Below, in pieces: positions 1 to 10,189 of a DNA stretch of 32,864 nucleotides. Both the position numbers and the translations under genes were made by a program. The stretch comes from Lachnospiraceae bacterium (lineage in GTDB: Bacteria > Bacillota > Clostridia > Lachnospirales > Lachnospiraceae): contig JAFZDQ010000027.1 in assembly GCA_017561085.1 (NCBI GenBank), forward strand, positions 1 to 32,864, in the 5' to 3' direction. The notes below the pieces were generated by a model. It did no database searches. It had not been told where the DNA came from and saw only the letters and a program-made list of their open reading frames with translations. The stretch's first letter is position 1, and each line of letters begins with the position of its first letter.

Positions 1-3000
1 CAGCTTTCCGATGCATATGTATTCCAGGCTGGCGGCAGTCCCGATTTAGACGAAGCAGATGTGACACACGGTGCTGCGGACGTCGGGGAGACAGGCACGG
101 ACCCGGAAACCGGACTTCAGACGGCGGTAGATCAGGATGCGGTAGATGCCTATATTTATCAGCAGCTGATGGCGAAAAAAACTAAGATTAATTTGGAGCA
201 GTTTACGATTCCTTTTGAAAGGTCAGTAGGAAATCTGATTTATAACGTGGTGAATGAGAATCCGGACCTTTATTTTGTGAATGTGGGAAGTGCGCTGGTT
301 TTTGGAAATAATACCATAGTGACATATGCCACAGTCAGCTATTATGATTCCTATGATATAGCGGCTTTTGATGCGGCGGTGGAGGATGCGCTTTCTGCTT
401 TGGATGACTCCATGAGCAGCCTGCAGAAGGCAATAGCCCTGCATGAATATATGGTGCTGAATTGTAAATATGATACAGGAAGTCCCATTAAGAGTAAGTC
501 TTATAATGCTTATGGTGCACTGGTAGACGGCGTTGCCGTTTGTCAGGGGTATGCCCTTGCTTATAAATATTTGTTAAATAAGGCCGGTGTAGCGTGCTAT
601 ATGGTCACCAGTGATACCATGAATCATGCCTGGAATATGGTAAAAACAGACGGGCAGTATTATCATGTGGATGCCACCTTTGATGATCCCCTTGCTGACA
701 GGATTGGCTACGTGCGCCACCATTATCTGCTACGTAGTGACGCAGCCATGTTAAATGGCGACCACGAGGGCTGGAAGGTAGTCTACAAGAACAAATCTGC
801 CGGCTACAAAGCAACAAGCACCGCTTATGACAATGCTTTTTGGGATGGCGTGAATTCCCCGCTGGTTATGAAGGGAAATGATTTGTTTTATATCAGTGAT
901 GCAAGCCGTGCCATCATAAAGCGCAGTATGAGTAGTGGCGCGGAAACGGTTTTGTATCAGGATTTTGAAAAGTGGAAGTCCATTGACGGAAAATATATCT
1001 GGAACTATGTCTGTTCCGGTCTGTTTCTGATTGGTGAAAGATTATATTTTAACTCCCCGGATTATATTTACAGTATTGATTTAACCGGCGGAAACGGCCG
1101 GGTGGAAACCAATAAGTTAAGTACTGCCCAAGGTTATGTATACGGCAGTGCCTGTATCGGCGGAAGTGTGAAGTATGCGCTCCACGCCAACTATTCCTTT
1201 AGCGGCGAAGAAACCGTTTCGGAAACCAAACTCCTTCACGGGGAAGGAATTCCGGTAAATAAGATTCTTTTGGACAAGGAAGAAGTGAAGCTTTCCGTAG
1301 GAGAGACAGCAGGGATTAGTGCCAAGGTTTATCCAAGTTATGTAAACCACGATGGAATTACGTGGAAAAGCAGCAATCCCTCTGTGGCCACAGTGGAAAA
1401 CGGTGTGATTACTGCCGTAAAAGACGGAACAGCCACCATTACGGCCTCTGTAGGCGGGGTTAGTGCATCCTGCCTTGTGAGTGTGCGTTACCGCCTGAAA
1501 AAGCCCGTATTTACCCCTTATACGCCTTTTAGGGGGGATGAGAGCAGTGGGGAGGATACAAGCACCATAGACAAGGGCGCGCAGGTGACCATTACGGCAG
1601 AAAATGGGGCAGTAATTTATTACACCACCGATGGCAGCAAGCCGGCTTTGGCGGTAACGTCAAAGACCAAGGAATATACGGCACCCATTACGGTTTCCAA
1701 GAATATGACCATCAAGGCCATTGCTGTTCGGGCAGACGTCGATACAAGTGAAGTAACTACTGTAAATTATATCGTTTGTACCAATAATCTGGTACTTGGC
1801 GAGACTACCCTTACCATGACAGAGGGAGAAAGTAAGACCCTGCAGTTAACGGAACTGCCTACCACCAAAACTTTGGCGGATGTTACGTTTACTTCTTCAA
1901 ATAGTAAGGTGGCAAGCGTGGATGCACAGGGGCAGATTACTGCTTTGTACGAAGGAACTGCTACCATTACGGCGCAGGTTACCGACCATCAGGGCAGAGA
2001 AGTGAAAGCTACTTGTGAAGTAACTGTGGAGCCTCCGGTTTATACCGTGACCTTTATGGGCAAGGGAAGCAATATCCCCATCAAAACCGAGAAAGTAAAA
2101 GCCCGCCGCAGTGCCACTCCGCCGGAGATTACGTTAGAGAGAACGCCTGAGGGGTATTACTTTATCGGCTGGAGAGGAAACTATACCAATGTTCAGGCGG
2201 ATACGGTGATACAGGCCCGTTTTCAGGCCATTATTTATACCATTGATTATGAACTGGGCGGTGGCGTCTTTGAAGCGGCGGTGCCAGACAGATTCACTAT
2301 AGAACATGACGATATCCTGCTTCCGGAGCCTACGCAAAACGGCATGAAATTTGCAGGCTGGTACTTGAATGAATCATTTACGGGCAGTCCTGTGGTGTGC
2401 ATTGAAGGCGGCAGTGTCGGAGATGTCACCCTTTATGCCAAGTGGGTAAATGCAAAAGGACTTTGGTTCAAGGAAGCTACTACGGAGGAGGAAAATGTCA
2501 TTCCTGCGAAAGCCTACACAGGCAAAGAAGTAAAGCCCTCCATTCAGGTATATTACGGCGACAAGCTTTTAAAGAAGGGCACCGATTATACTATTTCTTA
2601 CAAAAATAACGTGAAGGCCAATCTTCTTCAGACGGAAAAAGAACTTGCCGCAAAGCCTGCCGTAGTGATTACCGGAGAGGGCAATTACAAGGGGACCTTG
2701 CGGAGGAACTTTGTGATTGAAAAAAAGGCCCTTTCTGACAGCGATATTCAGATTGATAACCTGGCGGTAGCCTACAACAAGGGCAAAGCCGTAAAACCCG
2801 TTCCTGCCGTGAAATGGAAGGACACCAAGCTGGTTTACAAAACTGATTTTACGGTTTCTTATCCGGACAGTGAAGAGAATCTGTCTGCTTATAAAGAGCC
2901 CGGTACTTACCGCGTGATTGTGAAAGCCAAAGCAGGCGGTAACTTTTGCGGGGAAAAGGAAATAACCCTGACCATTGCAAAGCCGGCAGAGGAGCGCCTG

Positions 3001-4428
3001 ATTAGCAAGGCGACGGTAACGGCTATCGGGAAAAAGAACTACACCGGTGAGGCGATTAAGCCTACTGCAGAGCAACTGAAACTGACTTACGGAAAGAAAA
3101 AGACGCCCCTTGTGCCGGAAGTAGACTATACCGTGAAATATGACGATGCGAATGACGATTATACGAATATCGGTACCCATCAGATTATCATTGAAGGACT
3201 GGGGAAATATGTGGGCCAGCGCAGAGTCAGCTTCCAAATTAAGGGAACTGACGTAAGTACCATGAAAATTAAAGTGCCTGTTTTGACTTATGACGGAACC
3301 GCGCAGATGCCTCCCGTCAATCCGCCGGAAGTATTTGAAAACGGTGTTTTGAAAGAGGGAGCAGACCTTTCCGGCAAAATCATTATCCGGGATAAAAACG
3401 GACAGGCCTTGAAGGAAGGGGAGCACTTTACCCTGAAATTCAGCAGTAATAAAAACGCAGGAACCGCCAAACTGACGGTGAAGGGTATGGGACCCTACAC
3501 CGGAAGCGTAACCAAGGAATTTACCATTAAAAAGGCTTCTTTGGGCACTGCTAATGAGGCTGTGACGGCGGTATTTGCAAGCGATGCAGCAGGGAACGGC
3601 GCGTATGCGGGCGCCGGCGGCGCGGCGGCAGGAGGTGCAGGTGCAAATGCAAGCGGCGCGGACGTTTTCGCGTACCAGAAGGGCGGCACCAAGCCCAAGG
3701 TGGTAGTAACCTTTCGGGGACAGGTGTTAAAGGAAGGCACGGATTATACCTTAAGTTATGCAAATAATACCGCTGTGAGAGCGGCGGGCGATAATGGGGC
3801 CGGCGCTACCGCTAAATCCAAAGCACCCACCGTCACCATCACCGGCAATAAGAACTTTACAGGCAGCCGTAAGTTGACCTTCAGTATCGAAAAACAAGAC
3901 TTATCAGCTGTGAAGATTTCCGCTCCTGACAAGGTGGCAAGCAGCAAGGCGGGCGCTTTTTACAGTACGCCTGTGTTAACCGACGTAAACGGCAAAAAGC
4001 TGGTTGCCGGAACGGACTATAAGAAAACTTATGTTTATAAAGATGGTGCAGGCAACACGCTGACGAAGAAGAGTAAGCCCGGCGCAGAAACTACCGTGAC
4101 TGTCATCGTCACCGGTAAGGGTAACTACACCGGCACAGCATCCACTACTTACCGCATTATTAAGAAGAGCAACATGCTTTCTGAAGCGAAGGTGAGCTTT
4201 ACCCGGAAGTTCTACTACACCGGCGAAAAGGTGGTACTTTCCAAGGATGATTTAGTAGTGAAGGTGGGCGGCAAGACCCTCACCCCGGAGCAGTATGAAA
4301 TTGTCAGCACCAGCTACAAAAATAATGTGAAGTGCGGTACCGCCAAAGTGACCATTAAGGGCAAAGGTGAGTACGGCGGCACCAAGATCATAAGCTTTAC
4401 CATTAACCGGCAGACGATGAAGTGGTAG
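1..4428 (+). CDS. Large surface protein, transglutaminase-like plus Big_2, InlB-like and YTG-type repeats (5' partial)
   Basis: The reading frame is open from base 1, so the true start and any signal peptide lie outside the window. The first recognisable domain is transglutaminase-like (about 400-720), with a Cys at 541 (VCQGYA), a His at 625 (NHAWN) and an Asp at 670 (HVDATFDDP), in the family's Cys-His-Asp order. Next come a segment resembling a WxxG/DUF5050-type repeat (840-1240), a Big_2 Ig-like domain (1250-1490), a chitobiase C-terminal-like domain with YYTTDGSKP (1500-1770), a second Big_2 (1780-2035) and two InlB B-repeat-like units ending in FIGW and FAGWY (2040-2455). Seven YTG-type modules finish the protein. 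The domain set indicates a secreted, surface-exposed protein that may crosslink or cleave peptide bonds; the substrate is unknown. There is no LPxTG motif or C-terminal membrane anchor. A Gly/Ala-rich insert lies at about 3585-3665. Confidence 0.85.
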   Translation, partial: QLSDAYVFQAGGSPDLDEADVTHGAADVGETGTDPETGLQTAVDQDAVDAYIYQQLMAKKTKINLEQFTIPFERSVGNLIYNVVNENPDLYFVNVGSALVFGNNTIVTYATVSYYDSYDIAAFDAAVEDALSALDDSMSSLQKAIALHEYMVLNCKYDTGSPIKSKSYNAYGALVDGVAVCQGYALAYKYLLNKAGVACYMVTSDTMNHAWNMVKTDGQYYHVDATFDDPLADRIGYVRHHYLLRSDAAMLNGDHEGWKVVYKNKSAGYKATSTAYDNAFWDGVNSPLVMKGNDLFYISDASRAIIKRSMSSGAETVLYQDFEKWKSIDGKYIWNYVCSGLFLIGERLYFNSPDYIYSIDLTGGNGRVETNKLSTAQGYVYGSACIGGSVKYALHANYSFSGEETVSETKLLHGEGIPVNKILLDKEEVKLSVGETAGISAKVYPSYVNHDGITWKSSNPSVATVENGVITAVKDGTATITASVGGVSASCLVSVRYRLKKPVFTPYTPFRGDESSGEDTSTIDKGAQVTITAENGAVIYYTTDGSKPALAVTSKTKEYTAPITVSKNMTIKAIAVRADVDTSEVTTVNYIVCTNNLVLGETTLTMTEGESKTLQLTELPTTKTLADVTFTSSNSKVASVDAQGQITALYEGTATITAQVTDHQGREVKATCEVTVEPPVYTVTFMGKGSNIPIKTEKVKARRSATPPEITLERTPEGYYFIGWRGNYTNVQADTVIQARFQAIIYTIDYELGGGVFEAAVPDRFTIEHDDILLPEPTQNGMKFAGWYLNESFTGSPVVCIEGGSVGDVTLYAKWVNAKGLWFKEATTEEENVIPAKAYTGKEVKPSIQVYYGDKLLKKGTDYTISYKNNVKANLLQTEKELAAKPAVVITGEGNYKGTLRRNFVIEKKALSDSDIQIDNLAVAYNKGKAVKPVPAVKWKDTKLVYKTDFTVSYPDSEENLSAYKEPGTYRVIVKAKAGGNFCGEKEITLTIAKPAEERLISKATVTAIGKKNYTGEAIKPTAEQLKLTYGKKKTPLVPEVDYTVKYDDANDDYTNIGTHQIIIEGLGKYVGQRRVSFQIKGTDVSTMKIKVPVLTYDGTAQMPPVNPPEVFENGVLKEGADLSGKIIIRDKNGQALKEGEHFTLKFSSNKNAGTAKLTVKGMGPYTGSVTKEFTIKKASLGTANEAVTAVFASDAAGNGAYAGAGGAAAGGAGANASGADVFAYQKGGTKPKVVVTFRGQVLKEGTDYTLSYANNTAVRAAGDNGAGATAKSKAPTVTITGNKNFTGSRKLTFSIEKQDLSAVKISAPDKVASSKAGAFYSTPVLTDVNGKKLVAGTDYKKTYVYKDGAGNTLTKKSKPGAETTVTVIVTGKGNYTGTASTTYRIIKKSNMLSEAKVSFTRKFYYTGEKVVLSKDDLVVKVGGKTLTPEQYEIVSTSYKNNVKCGTAKVTIKGKGEYGGTKIISFTINRQTMKW
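2494..4428 (+). repeat. Seven-module YTG-type repeat cassette, copy 1
   Basis: Seven degenerate modules of about 75-110 residues. Each carries variations of YTGxxIKP, then GTDYTxSYxNN, then GTAxVTIxGKGNYTG, then a TFTIxK end. The modules start near 2494, 2731, 3001, 3247, 3535, 3898 and 4168. The same seven modules occur in the same order in the downstream surface protein (8320-10189). Module 2 carries VSYPD and AYKEPGTY, module 5 carries KGGTKP, and module 6 carries DVNGKKL. Such modules are beta-rich and common in Firmicute surface proteins; the function (spacing, wall binding or adhesion) is not known from the sequence. Confidence 0.8.
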
Positions 4429-4540: not shown

Positions 4541-4569
4541 TTGTTTTTTTTATTCGTCAGTGTTATACT
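4541..4569 (+). promoter_or_regulatory. Sigma-A type promoter for the structured leader and PBECR4-like gene
   Basis: TTGTTT (4541-4546), a 17-base spacer, and TATACT (4564-4569). This predicts transcription starting near 4576, just before the first hairpin of the leader. Confidence 0.6.
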
Positions 4570-4575
4570 AAAAAT

Positions 4576-4781
4576 GCCGAAAGAGAAATCTTTCCCGTAT
4601 TTTACGGACACGCGATATAAGGAGCGTATCGCCGTTAGACCGGAAACGTTAAAACTATGCACCTACTTTACGAAATAGTTGATTTCGCATGAAAGTGGAA
4701 GGCTTTCAATTGGGTGGCACGCACCTAAATAAACCGGTATGCTTTGTAAATGTAGGAGTCTTGCAGATGCAGGACTCTTTT
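4576..4781 (+). ncRNA. Structured 5' leader, candidate attenuator or riboswitch of unknown class
   Basis: Between the promoter and the ribosome binding site there is a chain of local hairpins: GAAAGA/TCTTTC with a GAAA tetraloop (4579-4594), CCGTA/TACGG (4595-4607), GCGATA/TATCGC (4612-4632), AACTAT/ATAGTT (4653-4680), TGAAAG/CTTTCA (4690-4708), then a strong terminator. A long-range ACCGG (4639-4643) with CCGGT (4734-4738) pairing is also possible. The string GGGTGGCAC at 4712-4720 resembles the T-box element of tRNA-sensing leaders. However, I do not see the AGTA bulge of a canonical Stem I or an antiterminator that uses the terminator's 5' arm. The terminator sits only 5 bases before the ribosome binding site, the usual layout of transcription attenuation. 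The class is unassigned; it could also be an independent small RNA. Confidence 0.5.
4754..4781 (+). terminator. Leader terminator immediately before the PBECR4-like gene
   Basis: GAGTCTTGC (4756-4764), loop AGAT, GCAGGACTC (4769-4777), followed by TTTT. The stem is 9 bp with one G-U pair and extends by a further A-T and G-T. The position between promoter and start codon indicates conditional termination. Confidence 0.75.
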
Positions 4782-4796
4782 ACATAGGAGAACTTA

Positions 4797-5450
4797 ATGA
4801 TTATCAATTCTAAACTTTCAGATGAGGCTTTGTTAAAAGCTATCTATCAAGCAACTTCTGCTTATTCTAATCTAATAGGTAATTCTTATCTGATAATTGG
4901 AAAAAATAAAAATTCCAATTATTTTTATTTCCAGAACTTTTTCGAGAAAAAACATCTTATGCATTTACTGGGGATTAATTCTAAAACCTTGAGTGCAACG
5001 GAATTTTATGAGAAATGTGATTTATACAATAAGGGAAAAGGAGCGGGAATAGCATTATCAGATTGTACTCCATCGAGAAATCATAATCGAACCACGATTA
5101 ATGAGAAGTGTTCTTGTTGTGCTGATGTTTTACGTATACAGGATGCAAAGTATATGAAGATAGGCTTGAAAGATAAAATTTCTCAATATGTGAATTTTTC
5201 ATTCGGATATGGAAATGAAGCAACTTTGGGATTTCAAAAAATACGAGATACTTCTTTTCCTGTTACGTTGATACCAAGAAGTATTGATGAATTTGTTTTG
5301 CAAAAATATAGAATTATTTTTGTGCTAGAGAAAAAAGCAGAAGAAGAAAAATTTTCCCGAATAATAATGGAAGTAAAAGGCGGATTGTTTAAAGAATTAT
5401 ATAGTGATTTCCCAGATGACTTAAAAAAGTTAATAAATTTTGAAAAGTAG
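4797..5450 (+). CDS. PBECR4-like domain protein (RNase-fold, toxin-like)
   Basis: A 217-residue protein without signal peptide or membrane segment, so probably cytosolic. The start is set by AGGAG at 4786-4790, 6 bases before the ATG. The central part, with FEKKHLMHLLGI at residues 49-60, matches the pattern I know from the phage-Barnase-EndoU-ColicinE5/D-RelE-like nuclease (PBECR) families, where an aromatic/basic stretch precedes HLxGI. The remainder has a Cys cluster (CSCC, residues 105-108) and a C-terminal beta-rich part. PBECR proteins are predicted RNases or toxins linked to phages and mobile elements. The gene is visibly more AT-rich than both neighbours and breaks a run of surface-protein genes, which suggests acquisition by transfer. 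No antitoxin-sized gene is adjacent. The family call is from memory of the motif and remains tentative. Confidence 0.55.
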   Translation: MIINSKLSDEALLKAIYQATSAYSNLIGNSYLIIGKNKNSNYFYFQNFFEKKHLMHLLGINSKTLSATEFYEKCDLYNKGKGAGIALSDCTPSRNHNRTTINEKCSCCADVLRIQDAKYMKIGLKDKISQYVNFSFGYGNEATLGFQKIRDTSFPVTLIPRSIDEFVLQKYRIIFVLEKKAEEEKFSRIIMEVKGGLFKELYSDFPDDLKKLINFEK

Positions 5451-5522: not shown

Positions 5523-6176
5523 ATGAAACGAAGAATTTTCAGCATGATTCTGGCAGCGGTGATGGTATTTACCAATGTGGATATCACAGCTTTTGCGCAG
5601 ACCGAAAGCGGCGCGGAAGTAATTGCCGTTACAGAAGATGAAACCATATCAGAAGAAGGAGAGGGCGAAAACGGTCAGACAGAAGGTACTGGTGAAGCGA
5701 CTGCGGAGCCAACAGATGAGCCTACGACAGAGCCAACTAAGGAACCTACTGAGGCGCCAACGGAGGCGCCGACCACGGAGCCGTCACCTGAGGCGACTGT
5801 AGAGCCTACCGAAGCACCGGCAGCAAGCGAAACACCAACAGCTTCCATAGAGCCTTCGCCTGCAGCAAGCGAGAGTCCTTCAGCAACGGAGAATCCTACA
5901 GGAACTCCGGCAGCTACAGAAGAACCTACCACAGCGCCAACAGAAACGCCGGCAACATCTGCAGAACCGACTGTAGAACCCACTGTGGCACCCACCCAAG
6001 CGCCAACTACGGCACCCGAGGTGGACGTGGAGGATTTCCAAGTAACCCAGAATACCACCTTAACTGAGGATATGAAGGTTACCACTCTTTATATCAAGAA
6101 AGGCTACGACCTGTTCTTAGCGGTTATGACTTGGAAGTATATGGTGATGCTGAAATTTACGGAGATATTGATTTAG
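5523..6176 (+). CDS. N-terminal part of a secreted beta-helix/YTG-repeat protein, cut by a frameshift
   Basis: The ATG is preceded by AGGAGG at 5510-5515. Residues 1-26 are a signal peptide (basic MKRR, hydrophobic core, AFAQ cleavage region). Residues about 30-165 are a Thr/Glu/Pro/Ala-rich linker of EPT and APT units, a typical flexible, probably glycosylated spacer. The last sensible in-frame residues are GYDLFL (ending at 6119). After that the frame gives a non-homologous tail of 19 residues up to the stop at 6174-6176. The -1 frame continues with SGYDLEVYGD, which aligns with ELSLDGHRLTLNGD in the downstream repeats. This ORF and the next are therefore one ancestral protein of about 1550 residues. 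A missing A at TTA-AGC would explain the break. Confidence 0.8.
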   Translation: MKRRIFSMILAAVMVFTNVDITAFAQTESGAEVIAVTEDETISEEGEGENGQTEGTGEATAEPTDEPTTEPTKEPTEAPTEAPTTEPSPEATVEPTEAPAASETPTASIEPSPAASESPSATENPTGTPAATEEPTTAPTETPATSAEPTVEPTVAPTQAPTTAPEVDVEDFQVTQNTTLTEDMKVTTLYIKKGYDLFLAVMTWKYMVMLKFTEILI

Positions 6177-8300
6177 GTGGCGGAAGCCTGATTATACACG
6201 GAAATGTGTTGCACACCTACGGTGGAATAACCTTTGCGGGCGGTAGTATGACAGTCGCCGGAGATTATCACTTAGAAGAACTGGCTAAAGACGGCACCTA
6301 TAATAAAGGCAGCGGTTCCTTCAAAATGGAAAACAGCGCAGACATCCTGGATGTAAACGGCGATTTTTATTGTAACAGCGCTACGAATAATCTTTCAGCA
6401 GGAACCATATCCTTTGCAGGGGATGTAATCATTAAGACCGTATTCAAGTGTACCGGTACCCACAAGATGATTTTTGACGGAACCGGAGAACAGGATATTT
6501 GCTTTGGTACCAATAATGACCAAATCTTTGCCAATGAGCTGGACATCCAAAATGACAAAGTAGCGGTAGAGCGCCTTAGTTTTGCAAAACTTTTGTCAGA
6601 TGCAACGATAAGCGCAGACGAAGCGGATATTTGGGCATATAGTGATAACGCTGCCATTAATTTAGATGGGCACTCATTCGCTGTTAACGGTAATTTGAAG
6701 TTAAGAGGGACTGTTAAAAAAGGTATCGACCTTGCAGGCGGCGAACTTATTGTAAACGGCAATTTACTCCATTCCTCGGGAAAGGTTTTCCTGAATGGCG
6801 GTAAACTTAAAGTTTCCGGGGATTACCGTATAGAAACCAGAGAAACAGACGATCAGGGACAGGTAGTATATTCAAGTAGCGATGGCTTTTTGGTTATGAC
6901 AAATCCGCAGGATGTATTAGATGTAGACGGCGATTTTATCACCAATAGTTCCGGTTCCAATTATGAAATGAATGCAGGAACCATTTATCTTGCGGGTGAT
7001 GTACAAATTGCGGAAGGATATTTTAGGGGAACAGGAACACATCGGGTAGTACTCGACGGAACAGATGAACAAAGGGTTAATATAGCCAACAGTAACAGTT
7101 ATTTTAGTGAACTGGACATTCAAAACCAAAGTACGGTAATAGAACGTATCGGATTTAGTAAATTGATATCAGATGTAACTTGCAGTGCCGATGACGCAGT
7201 GATTTGGGCAGGCGGTAAAGAATTATCTTTAGACGGCCATAGACTGACTTTAAATGGCGATGTCACGGTTGGCGTTTATCAGTATTTCGCTATGGACCTG
7301 GCAGGCGGCGAATGTATCGTAAACGGTGACCTTACACATACCGCAGGTGACCTTGTGTTCAACAAAGGTAAGCTTCAAGTTAACGGTGATTACCGCGCAG
7401 TCACCAAAGTAACCGGCGAAAACGGCGAGATTACTTATGATGACAGCCATACGGCTCTTTTCATGAATTTTGCGGAAGATTATATGGATGTAAACGGAGA
7501 TTTTAACTCTGACAGTTCCCGTAATTCCAAGCATGAACTCAATGCCGGCGTTATGGAAATTGAAGGAAGTATCCTGATTATAGACAGATTTTTCCGTGGA
7601 AAAGGGACCCACAAGCTGGTACTTAACGGTACGGAAGAACAGAACATTTTTATGTATCACACGGATAGCTATTTCAACGAAGTAGAATTTTTAAATGAAA
7701 ATGTTGTGATAGAAAGATTTGGTCTTTGCAAATTAGGATCCGACGCAGTGATTACTCCTGAAGACGCAGTGATTTGGGCGGGCGGTAACGAATTGTCTTT
7801 AAATGGGCATAAATGGACGATAAACGGTGATATTACCTTTGGTATTTACGGATATTTTGTGCTGAATCTTGCAGGCGGCGAGCTCATCGTAAACGGTGAC
7901 CTTATCCATACCGCAGGAGACCTTGTGTTCAACAAAGGTAAACTGTTGGTTAGCGGAGATTACCAAGCGGCCACAAAGACAGTTGCCGAGAACGGTGAAA
8001 TTGATTATGCGGCAGGTCACTCTGCGCTTTTCATGAGTTATCCTGAGGATTACATGGACGTAGATGGTGATTTTAAGTCAAACAGTACCCGTAGTAGCAA
8101 TACGGAACTCAAAGCAGGTATTATGGAACTGGCCGGGGACGTAATCATCAGCGATACCTATTATAAATTCACCGGCACCCATAAGGTGATTTTGGACGGT
8201 GATGAAAAGCAGACCATCATTGTTACAGGCCGCAGTGCATTCTTTAACATCCTGCAGCTTACCAAAAAGATGGACAACTATGATTTCCATCCTTATGGTT
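6111..8300 (+). repeat. Four tandem ~190-residue beta-strand-rich repeats
   Basis: Repeats start at about 6111, 6656, 7223 and 7793 (spacings 545, 567 and 570 bases). Each begins with LxLxGHxxxxNGD, continues with LAGGExIVNGDLxHxxG, GKLxVxGDY, DxMDVxGDF, and ends with GTHKxxLDGxxxQ and a VIERxGFxKL segment. Copies 3 and 4 are close to identical in DNA over parts of their length (for example around 7318-7375 and 7888-7946), which points to recent duplication or gene conversion. Copy 1 contains the frameshift. Confidence 0.8.
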
Positions 8301-10189
8301 GCTGGAAGATGCTGATTGAAGCAAAGGATTTCTTAATTAAGTACGTGGACACCTATTATTACACCGGACAGGCCATTAAGCCGGAAGTGGAGGTTTACGA
8401 AGGAGAGACTCTCTTAGAGAAGGATAAAGATTACACCGTATCCTACAAAAATAATATTAAGGTGAATGCCACTGCATCAGGAAAGACTCCTCCTACCATT
8501 ATCGTAAAAGGAAAAGGCGGCTACAACGGCACCAACACGGAAACCTTCAAAATCCTGAAGCGGGATATCGCGGATGAGGAAATTATCGTAGAGGAGTTCA
8601 CCGCATCCTATAACGGAACAGTACTGAAGAAAACGCCCGTGCTTTCTCATAACGGAAAGAAACTGGTGGCGAAAACAGACTTTACCGTTTCTTATCCCGA
8701 CCTTTCTGCAGAAGCGTACAAAGAAGTGGGAACCTACTCCGTACTGGTGAAGGGCAAAGGAAGCTACACCGGTACAAGGGAAGTAATCTTTACGGTAACG
8801 CCCGTGAAGTTTATGCAGGATGTGAAGGTATCTGCCATTGCATCCCAGACTTACAAGGGAGAGGCTATTACCCTGCAGAATATGACAGCGGCTCCGACCA
8901 TTAAGTACGGCACTACTGTGTTAACAGAAGGCGTACACTTTACGGTGGCTTATGAAAATAATGTGAAGGTGGGAACTGCAACCATTACCCTGACAGGAAC
9001 CGAAAAAGAAACCCCGGAAGGCTTTTTCAAAGGAATCAAGACCGTAACCTTCAAGATTAGCGGCAAGAGCCTTGCCAAAGCGAAGGTGACGGGAGTTCCT
9101 ACAGCTTTGACCTATACCGGTCAGGAAATCAATGAACAAACCGAAGGCTGGACGAAACCTATTAAGGTAACTCTTTCAGGAAAGACCTTAACCCGCGCGG
9201 CAAATGAAGATTCCGCAGGCGATTATGTGGTTATTTTTGCGAAAAATGTAAACAAAGGTACCGCTTCCGTGACCATCAAGGGTGTAAACAACTACGCCGG
9301 CAGCGTGAAGAAAACCTTTACCATTAATGCTTACAATATAAGTGATAATAAGGGTAAAAATCTTGTGACGGAAGAAATGGCTCCTTCCATTGTCTTTGTG
9401 AAAGGCGGCAGCAAGCCGGAGCCTGTGGTAAAATTCGGCGACACCGTTCTTCAAAAGGGCAAAGATTACACATTATCCTATGTAAATAACACCAAGTATC
9501 ACAGTGGTACCGGTAAAAACAAACCTACCGTAACCATTACCGGTAAGGGCAATTTTAAGGGTAGCGTGAAACTTACCTTTGCCATCGATAAGCAGGACAT
9601 TGGTGTTGCGACACTGACTGCGCCGGATGCAACCTACAAAAATGCTAAGGGAGCGTACAAGTCAGCCCTTGTGGTAAAGGATGTAAACGGCAAGGCGTTG
9701 AAGAGCGGAACCGATTATACTGCTGCTTACACTTATGCGCAGGATGTAACCTTAAAGAACAAGGCAGAGCGTAAGGAAGGCGATGCAGTAAAGGCTGCGG
9801 ATATCGTACCTGCAGGTACACGCCTTAGAGTAACGGTTTCCGGTAAGGGAAGTTATACCTCTGAAAATCCCCTTACTGCTACTTATCTGGTAGTAAAAGG
9901 AAGCGTGGCAAATGCAACAGTTACCGTACCTTCCCGAACGTACACCGGTGAACCCATCATCTTTGAAAATACTGCAGAAGATAAAGCGAAAATTAAGGTG
10001 ATGATTGGGAAACAAAGATTAAAATCTGAAGATTTTGAAATTGTGGAAGGAAGTTTTTCAAACAATACGGAAGCAGGCACCGCAAGCTTTATGGTGAAAG
10101 GTGTAGGAAACTACGGCGGTATCAAGAAAGTGACTTTCACCATTACCAAGAAGAAATTCGATGCATGGTGGAGAGTGATTTTCAGGTAA
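6131..10189 (+). CDS. Main part of the secreted beta-helix/YTG-repeat surface protein (frame-shifted from its signal peptide)
   Basis: The annotated start is an in-frame TTG without a ribosome binding site. The homologous frame extends upstream to at least 6116 and joins the preceding signal-peptide ORF through a -1 shift near 6119. Up to about 8300 there are four tandem ~190-residue repeats rich in short beta strands (LSLNGHKWTINGD, LAGGELIVNGDL, YMDVDGDF, GTHKVILDG), which look like a right-handed beta-helix or polymer-forming stack. From 8320 seven YTG-type modules follow, paralogous to those of the upstream transglutaminase-like protein. The protein ends with an aromatic/basic tail (DAWWRVIFR). 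Without the signal peptide it would not be exported, so the gene is either inactivated, phase-variable, or affected by a sequencing error. A strong terminator follows at 10218. Confidence 0.8.
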   Translation: MEVYGDAEIYGDIDLGGGSLIIHGNVLHTYGGITFAGGSMTVAGDYHLEELAKDGTYNKGSGSFKMENSADILDVNGDFYCNSATNNLSAGTISFAGDVIIKTVFKCTGTHKMIFDGTGEQDICFGTNNDQIFANELDIQNDKVAVERLSFAKLLSDATISADEADIWAYSDNAAINLDGHSFAVNGNLKLRGTVKKGIDLAGGELIVNGNLLHSSGKVFLNGGKLKVSGDYRIETRETDDQGQVVYSSSDGFLVMTNPQDVLDVDGDFITNSSGSNYEMNAGTIYLAGDVQIAEGYFRGTGTHRVVLDGTDEQRVNIANSNSYFSELDIQNQSTVIERIGFSKLISDVTCSADDAVIWAGGKELSLDGHRLTLNGDVTVGVYQYFAMDLAGGECIVNGDLTHTAGDLVFNKGKLQVNGDYRAVTKVTGENGEITYDDSHTALFMNFAEDYMDVNGDFNSDSSRNSKHELNAGVMEIEGSILIIDRFFRGKGTHKLVLNGTEEQNIFMYHTDSYFNEVEFLNENVVIERFGLCKLGSDAVITPEDAVIWAGGNELSLNGHKWTINGDITFGIYGYFVLNLAGGELIVNGDLIHTAGDLVFNKGKLLVSGDYQAATKTVAENGEIDYAAGHSALFMSYPEDYMDVDGDFKSNSTRSSNTELKAGIMELAGDVIISDTYYKFTGTHKVILDGDEKQTIIVTGRSAFFNILQLTKKMDNYDFHPYGCWKMLIEAKDFLIKYVDTYYYTGQAIKPEVEVYEGETLLEKDKDYTVSYKNNIKVNATASGKTPPTIIVKGKGGYNGTNTETFKILKRDIADEEIIVEEFTASYNGTVLKKTPVLSHNGKKLVAKTDFTVSYPDLSAEAYKEVGTYSVLVKGKGSYTGTREVIFTVTPVKFMQDVKVSAIASQTYKGEAITLQNMTAAPTIKYGTTVLTEGVHFTVAYENNVKVGTATITLTGTEKETPEGFFKGIKTVTFKISGKSLAKAKVTGVPTALTYTGQEINEQTEGWTKPIKVTLSGKTLTRAANEDSAGDYVVIFAKNVNKGTASVTIKGVNNYAGSVKKTFTINAYNISDNKGKNLVTEEMAPSIVFVKGGSKPEPVVKFGDTVLQKGKDYTLSYVNNTKYHSGTGKNKPTVTITGKGNFKGSVKLTFAIDKQDIGVATLTAPDATYKNAKGAYKSALVVKDVNGKALKSGTDYTAAYTYAQDVTLKNKAERKEGDAVKAADIVPAGTRLRVTVSGKGSYTSENPLTATYLVVKGSVANATVTVPSRTYTGEPIIFENTAEDKAKIKVMIGKQRLKSEDFEIVEGSFSNNTEAGTASFMVKGVGNYGGIKKVTFTITKKKFDAWWRVIFR
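8320..10189 (+). repeat. Seven-module YTG-type repeat cassette, copy 2
   Basis: Seven modules in the same order as copy 1 (2494-4428). Matching marks are YKNN in module 1, VSYPD with AYKEVGTY in module 2, KGGSKPEPVV with FAIDKQD in module 5, DVNGKALKSGTDY in module 6, and GTASFMVKGVGNYGG in module 7. Copy 2 lacks the Gly/Ala-rich insert of copy 1 module 5. Confidence 0.8.

What the first reader, a model, noticed from the sequence alone, without database searches (positions are those of the whole stretch)
4541..5450. PBECR4-like toxin-type gene behind an attenuator-like structured leader
The sequence shows a sigma-A promoter, then about 200 nt with five consecutive local hairpins, then a strong intrinsic terminator ending 5 bases before the ribosome binding site of a 217-aa ORF. 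That layout is what riboswitches and T-boxes use. The ORF resembles the PBECR4 RNase-fold family, for which I know of no riboswitch control. A leader that senses a ligand, tRNA or phage product and releases an RNase-like toxin would be a new kind of regulated defence or stress unit. The function is inference.
Basis: partly seen in the sequence, partly recalled or inferred. Interest (0 to 1): 0.72.

Follow-up and report, generated by a model that had tools for sequence, protein, structure and literature searches.

The report
RNase toxin leashed by leader RNA
A gut bacterium carries a predicted RNA-cutting toxin gene behind a conserved folded RNA that looks like its antidote rather than a metabolite switch; relatives of this pair are common in the same bacterial family, and some viral sequences carry an antidote-like RNA without the toxin.

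Summary
In detail: promoter, folded leader, terminator and a PBECR4 ORF lie where stated. The attenuator reading is not supported. The leader is a conserved RNA without an Rfam match, about 90% identical to four relatives, with covariation in each of eight helices counted, two pseudoknots included; the terminator arms show no shared alternative pairing.

The evidence points to an RNA antitoxin. In 299 genomes, 43 of 74 PBECR4 hits lie just downstream of one of three RNA types: this leader, a pseudoknot-unit RNA, or Rfam's orphan 'drum' RNA (23 of 30 drum hits). Terminator-like hairpins precede 39 of 58 PBECR4 genes and 12 of 239 control ORFs. RNA type follows the toxin tree. Toxins are often broken or absent while the RNA persists, and seven IMG/VR contigs carry RNA copies with no PBECR4 in the stretch held, three in or next to tRNA genes, like pseudo-ToxI of phage PhiTE.

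Best reading: a type III-like toxin-antitoxin module with a toxin family and RNA architectures outside ToxIN, CptIN and TenpIN. Toxicity, neutralisation and defence are inferred.

The parts
4541..4569 (+). sigma-A-type promoter: TTGTTT, 17 bases, extended -10 TGtTATACT
   Evidence: sequence; similar -10 in L003-L005; not reported by the consensus scan
4576..4738 (+). conserved RNA (proposed antitoxin), window class
   Evidence: R1 191.5 bits, the model includes it; 89.6-91.5% identical to L003-L006; covariation
4579..4594 (+). hairpin P1
4595..4607 (+). hairpin P2
4612..4632 (+). hairpin P3, loop begins TAAGGAG (TAAGGTG in some relatives)
4633..4660 (+). first ring unit: hairpin P4 CGTT[AGACCGGA]AACG, TTAAAA linker, strand CTATGC
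   Evidence: P4 is absent from the nested best fold
4671..4687 (+). hairpin P5 (weakly conserved in distant relatives; not counted)
4690..4708 (+). hairpin P6 with loop TGGAAGG or TGAGAGG
4710..4738 (+). last ring unit: hairpin P7 TTGGGTG[GCACG]CACCTAA, A-rich linker, strand CCGGT. CCGGT pairs with 4639-4643 in the loop of P4 (PK1); the P7 loop pairs weakly with 4655-4660 (PK2)
   Evidence: 14 sequences: PK1 68 of 70 cells, PK2 68 of 75 cells
4754..4781 (+). intrinsic terminator, 11-bp stem and short T run
   Evidence: missed by the stricter scan
4786..4790 (+). ribosome binding site AGGAG
4797..5450 (+). PBECR4 protein, 217 aa, predicted RNase toxin
   Evidence: Pfam; H56 in 12 of 12 rows of A4 and 7 of 8 of A7, Ser or Thr at 157 in 12 of 12 and 9 of 9; dN 0.196 and dS 2.7 against L003

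Best explanation
The locus is a type III-like toxin-antitoxin module. One promoter makes the structured RNA 4576-4738. Most transcripts stop at the terminator, so RNA exceeds toxin; read-through yields the PBECR4 protein, an RNase of predicted BECR fold. The RNA binds the toxin directly and keeps it inactive. When transcription or RNA turnover is disturbed, for example by a phage, the RNA decays, the toxin is freed and growth or phage multiplication stops. Shown here: layout, conservation, covariation, linkage to the toxin lineage, toxin loss with RNA retention, toxin-less copies in viral contigs. Inferred: toxicity, RNase activity, binding, neutralisation, defence.
For: (1) Linkage: a PBECR4 hit starts on the same strand within 420 nt downstream of 23 of 30 drum, 18 of 35 class A and 2 of 8 window-class RNA hits; 43 of 74 PBECR4 hits have one of the three upstream. 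Of the 28 other hits fetched, I labelled 16 by eye as having further RNA-like repeats. (2) Terminator-like hairpin upstream: 39 of 58 PBECR4 genes, 12 of 239 control ORFs, Fisher p 6e-24. (3) Covariation: window class, 14 sequences, 494 of 509 cells paired, 86 cells changed on both sides against 24.7 +/- 5.6 when arms are shuffled; class A, ten sequences, 36 cells against 13.2 +/- 2.6. (4) Co-evolution: 55 toxins, six RNA classes, 5 changes on a quick tree (the minimum), shuffled mean 28.6, 0 of 200 as low. (5) Broken toxins with RNA kept: L002, L003, L005, L006, possibly L056 (by eye); class A remnants L101, L106, L110; drum remnant L067. (6) Toxin-less RNAs in viral contigs: L153, L155, L156, L159, L163, L164, L165. 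(7) No shared antiterminator. (8) Same layout in C. difficile AbiF/RCd22, reported there as toxin and neutralising RNA (PMC12373285, abstract and one section).
Against: No wet evidence. The window RNA is not a tandem repeat, a hallmark of ToxIN, CptIN and TenpIN. Its second pseudoknot is weak (UGC/GCA plus one pair). Of 8 window-class hits in 397 genomes only 2 have a PBECR4 hit next to them, the window and G157, whose protein scores 23.7 bits, below Pfam's cut-off; one (G275, 29 bits) is probably false. 17 of 35 class A and 7 of 30 drum hits have no PBECR4 hit next to them. 19 of 58 PBECR4 genes gave no terminator by my rule. On the tree drum, A and window class each need 2 changes, so none is a single clade there. 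One covariation measure, further pair types, was no better than shuffles (414 of 500). Labels E, F, G and H were given by eye; E, F and H entered the tree count. Four of the seven viral copies are single units or pieces scoring only 20.9-31.6 bits. L153's viral nature rests on IMG/VR: of three proteins scanned two gave only weak PHROG matches of unknown function and one none. No defence-type Pfam family appears among the window neighbours scanned.
Confidence: 0.78

Rival explanations
1. Attenuator or riboswitch: the leader senses a ligand, tRNA or phage product and opens the terminator to release the toxin.
For: Leader-terminator-RBS layout and strong fold. In three related leaders (L002, L053, L148) the terminator's 3' arm can pair 6-7 nt with the same AAACTTT stretch. 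In AbiF the ncRNA also lowers toxin expression and the authors mention a riboswitch-like step (PMC12373285, section 7).
Against: No T-box or riboswitch match. Across 12 leaders the complements are near chance length and not shared between sub-groups. Terminator regions are 71-75% identical while the core is 90-96%. The RNA persists without the gene and in viral tRNA arrays.
Confidence: 0.09
2. The RNA is a guide, activator or substrate of the PBECR4 nuclease rather than its inhibitor.
For: Tight RNA-protein linkage and co-evolution do not by themselves tell an inhibitor from a cofactor.
Against: A cofactor would be pointless where the protein is broken or gone, yet the RNA stays conserved; viral contigs carry the RNA alone.
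Confidence: 0.08
3. Autoregulation only: the protein binds or cuts its own leader to set its level; the gene is a regulator, not a toxin.
For: RNA class tracks protein clade; type III toxins also process their RNA (PMC5086642, passages).
Against: Frequent loss of the protein with RNA retained, and RNA-only viral copies, are unexplained.
Confidence: 0.05

Closest known systems
Type III toxin-antitoxin systems (ToxIN, CptIN, TenpIN)
   Same: One promoter, structured pseudoknot RNA, intrinsic terminator, predicted RNase toxin gene; toxin-less RNA copies in viral contigs resemble pseudo-ToxI of phage PhiTE (PMC3475682, abstract and outline); toxin and RNA co-evolve.
   Different: Toxin is PBECR4; NCBIfam gives none of 12 relatives a type III toxin name. 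The window RNA is a ring of two unlike units closed by loop-strand pairing between first and last unit, not a row of like repeats each folding alone.
AbiF / RCd22 of Clostridioides difficile
   Same: SigA promoter, structured ncRNA, terminator, toxin, read-through transcript; RNA acts in cis and trans (PMC12373285, abstract and section 7).
   Different: Abi_2 (AbiF) toxin and abiF RNA motif RF03085; neither appeared in the Pfam and Rfam scans here.
drum RNA (RF02958)
   Same: Directly upstream of PBECR4 in 23 of 30 hits; same logic of hairpin loop, A-rich linker and distant strand, seen by eye, not counted.
   Different: The window RNA is not drum: no match even at E 10. Rfam types drum as an sRNA.
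PBECR domains of phage polyvalent proteins
   Same: PBECR clade; RNase predicted from a conserved His and a C-terminal Thr/Ser (PMC5512222, passages).
   Different: Here a stand-alone gene behind an RNA; the passages seen mention no partner RNA.

Membership tests
Type III toxin-antitoxin | one promoter, RNA first, toxin gene second | tested here: met
   layout by sequence; transcription not measured
Type III toxin-antitoxin | Rho-independent terminator between RNA and toxin | tested here: met
   an 11-15 bp hairpin in 12 of 12 leaders; 39 of 58 against 12 of 239
Type III toxin-antitoxin | antitoxin made of tandem nucleotide repeats | tested here: not met
   window RNA has two unlike cross-paired units; class A relatives do have two to three similar units
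Type III toxin-antitoxin | RNA contains pseudoknots | tested here: met
   PK1 and PK2; class A helices 2, 3 and 6
Type III toxin-antitoxin | toxin is a ToxN/CptN/TenpN homologue | tested here: not met
   by sequence only: no ToxN-type Pfam, NCBIfam or PDB match; fold not testable
Type III toxin-antitoxin | RNA neutralises an RNase toxin by direct binding | not testable with these tools
   needs an experiment
PBECR4 (PF18813) | Pfam score over the curated cut-off | tested here: met
   53.5 bits against 27
PBECR4 (PF18813) | conserved helix His and C-terminal Thr/Ser of BECR RNases (PMC5512222) | tested here: met
   H56 12 of 12 and 7 of 8; Ser/Thr at 157 12 of 12 and 9 of 9; that these are the catalytic residues is inferred
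drum RNA RF02958 | covariance model match | tested here: not met
T-box / riboswitch | Rfam match | tested here: not met
T-box / riboswitch | alternative antiterminator pairing with the terminator | tested here: not met
   best complements 4-7 nt, shuffled means 5.2-6.4; same place only among close relatives

The most novel reading that the evidence does not exclude
PBECR4 proteins are the toxins of a large, overlooked superfamily of RNA-neutralised toxin-antitoxin systems in Bacillota. Their antitoxins are ring-closed pseudoknot RNAs (the loop of the first hairpin pairs with the strand after the last, and the reverse), of at least three modelled classes including the orphan drum RNA, which would thereby get a function. 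Phages answer with toxin-less RNA decoys, some embedded in tRNA arrays.
Probability: 0.6. Interest if true: 0.9.

Novelty: new variant of a known kind. Interest (0 to 1): 0.82.

Why it matters
It would give a function to a protein family (PBECR4) and an Rfam RNA (drum) for which I found no described function in the searches named in the report, add a toxin lineage and new RNA folds to RNA-neutralised toxin-antitoxin systems, and suggest a counter-defence in which phages carry decoy antidote RNAs among their tRNA genes. The prediction is simple to test: a toxin, an RNA, rescue in trans.

Tried and rejected
T-box: GGGTGGCACG looks like the T-box GGGTGGNACC (recalled), but Rfam gives nothing up to E 10 and the bases form hairpin P7. 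A general riboswitch regulon: no window-class hit looked at drives an operon of another function; one (L053) lies before genes that look like AbiEi/AbiEii (names recalled) with their own promoter-like stretch. L016 at 21.6 bits with R1 proved to be class A. L058 (29 bits) is probably false, L158 a chance match in coding DNA. Searching viral contigs by protein found nothing; by RNA pattern it worked (97, 99, 126), while one drum pattern found none. The two drum contigs both have PBECR4 downstream, one with a broken frame. blastn of the window RNA found nothing in the phage and plasmid collections, nor the L165 RNA in the phage collection (122-124); blastn is too weak here, as it missed L148. 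PBECR4 was found in 2 of 219 genomes of the phylum sample, one being the window's own. PADLOC and NCBIfam know nothing of the window protein.

Slips: one search failed and was redone. In one search one arm (L005 P4) was mistyped, counting one true pair as a mismatch. In one search the stretches printed for L068 and L077 were wrong, redone; that for L100 was wrong, so L100 is judged only by the profile scan of the whole locus. G289:C154 was never fetched. The profile scans read the RNA's strand only. In one search the PBECR4 regions end at the profile match, the control regions at the first ATG. 58 of 74 PBECR4 hits entered; of the other 16, 13 (the window among them) have an RNA model hit upstream and 3 are second pieces of a gene. 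One search was a filing with fields missing.

Full report
Observation. Between a large surface-type protein gene (ending 4428) and another (5523 on) stand a promoter (4541-4569), a leader, a terminator (4754-4781), an RBS (4786-4790) and a 217-aa ORF (4797-5450). The leader folds better than each of 200 shuffles (z -3.93). The ORF is PBECR4 by Pfam (53.5 bits, cut-off 27). Rfam has no credible match. The tool's promoter and terminator scan listed neither element; they are read from the sequence and its relatives.

The leader is a conserved RNA. Four relatives in Lachnospiraceae MAGs keep its core at 89.6-91.5% identity to the window, while 160 bases further upstream in three of them are 49-55% alike, with no control for chance, and synonymous sites of the ORF are saturated against L004 (pS 0.77) and nearly so against L003 (dS 2.7, dN 0.196). 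A covariance model (R1) found it in 8 of 397 family genomes (one of the eight, G275 at 29 bits, is probably false) and in Lachnospira eligens ATCC 27750 (L148, 120.5 bits), where it also precedes a PBECR4 gene. I counted eight helices in 14 sequences: the window, L002-L006, L052-L057, L148 and L153 (P1-P3 not counted in L153; P5 not counted at all). 494 of 509 cells pair and 86 cells differ on both sides from the commonest pair, against 24.7 +/- 5.6 with arms shuffled. Two pseudoknots belong to it: the loop of P4 with the strand before the terminator (CUGG/CCAG in relatives, CCGG/CCGG in the window, a compensatory change in the window itself), and the strand after P4 with the loop of P7 (CUUUGC/GCAAAG, CUUUAC/GUAAAG, CUAUC/GAUAG; weak in the window). 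Shuffling arms reached the observed pairing in 3 and 0 of 2000 trials. Arms were placed by hand, which favours pairing; the shuffles use the same arms, and related sequences are not independent.

It is not an attenuator as far as sequence can tell. The 12 leaders examined (L057 and L153 were left out) have an 11-15 bp hairpin after the core. Its arms find only 4-7 nt complements in the core, near the shuffled means of 5.2-6.4. The places differ between sub-groups, though close relatives share some: AAGGCT in the window, L003 and L004, and AAACTTT in L002, L053 and L148. The terminator region drifts (71-75% identity) while the core does not (90-96%).

Other PBECR4 genes carry other RNAs. In 299 genomes of the family 57 have PBECR4, 74 hits. 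Of the 30 loci fetched with that search, 17 have Rfam's drum RNA directly upstream; the other 13 have a second RNA, class A, built of units of hairpin, A-rich linker and strand (model scores). In class A the loop of unit 1 pairs with the strand of the last unit, the strand of unit 1 with the loop of the last, and the middle unit with itself: 95.1% of cells paired, 36 cells changed on both sides against 13.2 +/- 2.6, and all three pseudoknot helices 100% paired with compensatory changes; helix 4 reaches only 70%, and the number of pair types is no better than shuffles (ten of 13 sequences; L030, L032 and L034 were left out). The window RNA is a two-unit ring of this kind with extra hairpins. 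An Erysipelothrix phage locus and an Enterococcus plasmid locus show the same rule with different letters. Twenty-eight further PBECR4 hits (L119-L146) gave no Rfam hit other than tRNAs and no R1 or R2 hit; by eye 16 of them have further repeat-type RNAs, which I labelled E, F, G and H; of the other 12 some look like truncated genes or false hits. The window's own genome has such a second PBECR4 (G000:C22, L139, class H).

Linkage in both directions. A PBECR4 hit starts within 420 nt downstream on the same strand for 23 of 30 drum hits, 18 of 35 class A hits and 2 of 8 window-class hits; 43 of 74 PBECR4 hits have one of the three upstream (several hits are pieces of one gene). Terminator-like hairpins precede 39 of 58 PBECR4 genes and 12 of 239 control ORFs from the same loci (p 6e-24). 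On a quick tree of 55 toxins the six RNA classes need 5 changes, the least possible, against 28.6 in shuffles. E, F and H are each one side of a branch; drum, A and the window class need 2 changes each. Six of 61 labelled loci dropped out as too short or without a profile hit. Drum, A and window labels come from Rfam, R2 and R1, those of E, F and H from reading.

Loss of the toxin, not of the RNA. Window-class RNAs stand before a broken toxin in L002 (internal stop, match ends early), L003 (start codon and RBS missing), L005 (first 53 residues not found) and L006 (residues 37-59 and those after 123 not found), possibly L056 (a PBECR4-like start by eye, frame soon closed, contig end), and before none in L052, L053, L055 and L057. 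Toxin ORFs without visible damage follow in the window, L004, L148 and L054; the last scores below Pfam's cut-off (23.7 bits). For drum, 7 of 30 hits lack a PBECR4 hit: one keeps a C-terminal remnant (L067, 14.5 bits), one is followed by what looks like an insertion element (L071, by eye), one lies at a contig end (L064), and four have none. For class A, 3 of the 16 non-adjacent hits scanned keep clear remnants (L101, L106, L110). This asymmetry is what toxin-antitoxin decay gives and a gene switch would not.

Viral contigs carry the RNA alone. A window-class pattern hit one IMG/VR contig (L153): R1 110 bits, 89-93% identical over about 100 bases to the window and L003-L006, the 5' part having been replaced. 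There is no PBECR4 in the 10 kb held, 1.4 kb of it downstream, and the RNA ends 4 bases before a tRNA-Thr gene, one of 8 tRNA genes in the stretch. A class A pattern hit 12 contigs: five with PBECR4 downstream (L154, L157, L160, L161, L162; in L161 the match lies in two frames), six without in the stretch held (L155, L156, L159, L163, L164, L165), one chance match (L158). In L165 the full three-unit RNA lies between tRNA-Thr and tRNA-Pro in a run of 19 tRNA genes; in L156 a single unit lies between tRNA-Met and tRNA-Phe. L156, L159, L163 and L164 hold one unit or a piece and score only 20.9-31.6 bits. L155, L156, L163 and L165 have clear phage proteins; L153 does not. This resembles the pseudo-ToxI of phage PhiTE, which lets it escape ToxIN (PMC3475682, abstract and outline).

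Mechanism. The layout equals that given for type III loci (PMC5086642, passages) and for AbiF/RCd22 (PMC12373285, abstract and one section): RNA in excess, toxin by read-through, direct neutralisation. I propose the same here at 0.78. Steps shown: anatomy, conservation, linkage, loss pattern, toxin-less viral copies. Steps inferred: toxicity, RNase activity, binding, release on infection.

Known or new. The protein family is named (Pfam; NCBI plasmid records call it PBECR4 domain-containing protein) and its clade is predicted to be RNases (PMC5512222, passages). drum is an Rfam family (a figure legend in PMC7779021, one passage). I found no paper that links them or describes PBECR4 as a toxin with an RNA partner: searches 28 (PBECR4, 0 papers), 47, 50, 84, 90, 91 and 130, mostly seen as listings, in open PubMed Central papers only; one listed paper that names PBECR was opened and speaks of PBECR3 (PMC9403866, passages). 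bioRxiv is not held and the drum paper recalled as Weinberg 2017 could not be read. By sequence the toxin is not a ToxN relative, so I call it type III-like, not a member of ToxIN, CptIN or TenpIN.

Noticed in passing
G000:C22:53697-54188 (L139), the window's own genome: A second, divergent PBECR4 gene with a different structured RNA (class H, by eye) and a terminator upstream.
   Followed up: partly
L007, L013-L015, L017, L019, L021-L025, L028, L029, L031, L033, L035, L036: The Rfam orphan drum RNA (RF02958) lies directly upstream of PBECR4; 23 of 30 drum hits in 299 genomes do.
   Followed up: yes
L165:9956-10083 (-), L156:about 3150-3190 (+), L163:about 796-837 (+), L153:1441-1602 (-): RNA copies without PBECR4 in IMG/VR contigs, two inside tRNA arrays and one (L153) 4 bases from a tRNA gene: possible decoy antitoxins.
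   Followed up: partly
L147 and 79 other plasmid records: PBECR4 on 80 plasmid records, 74 of them Enterococcus; 55 of the 80 predicted conjugative. L147 has two near-identical RNA repeats upstream.
   Followed up: partly
L053: A toxin-less window-class RNA directly before two genes that look like AbiEi/AbiEii (recalled, not scanned) with their own promoter-like region.
   Followed up: no
L092: A class A RNA and terminator followed by a GNAT-like acetyltransferase gene (by look) instead of PBECR4.
   Followed up: no
window 5523-6176 and 6131-10189: Two overlapping frames look like one long secreted protein split by a frameshift, real or from assembly.
   Followed up: no
window 4618-4626 and relatives: The P3 loop begins TAAGGAG (TAAGGTG or CAAGGAG in some relatives), a Shine-Dalgarno-like word exposed in a loop; reason unknown.
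   Followed up: no
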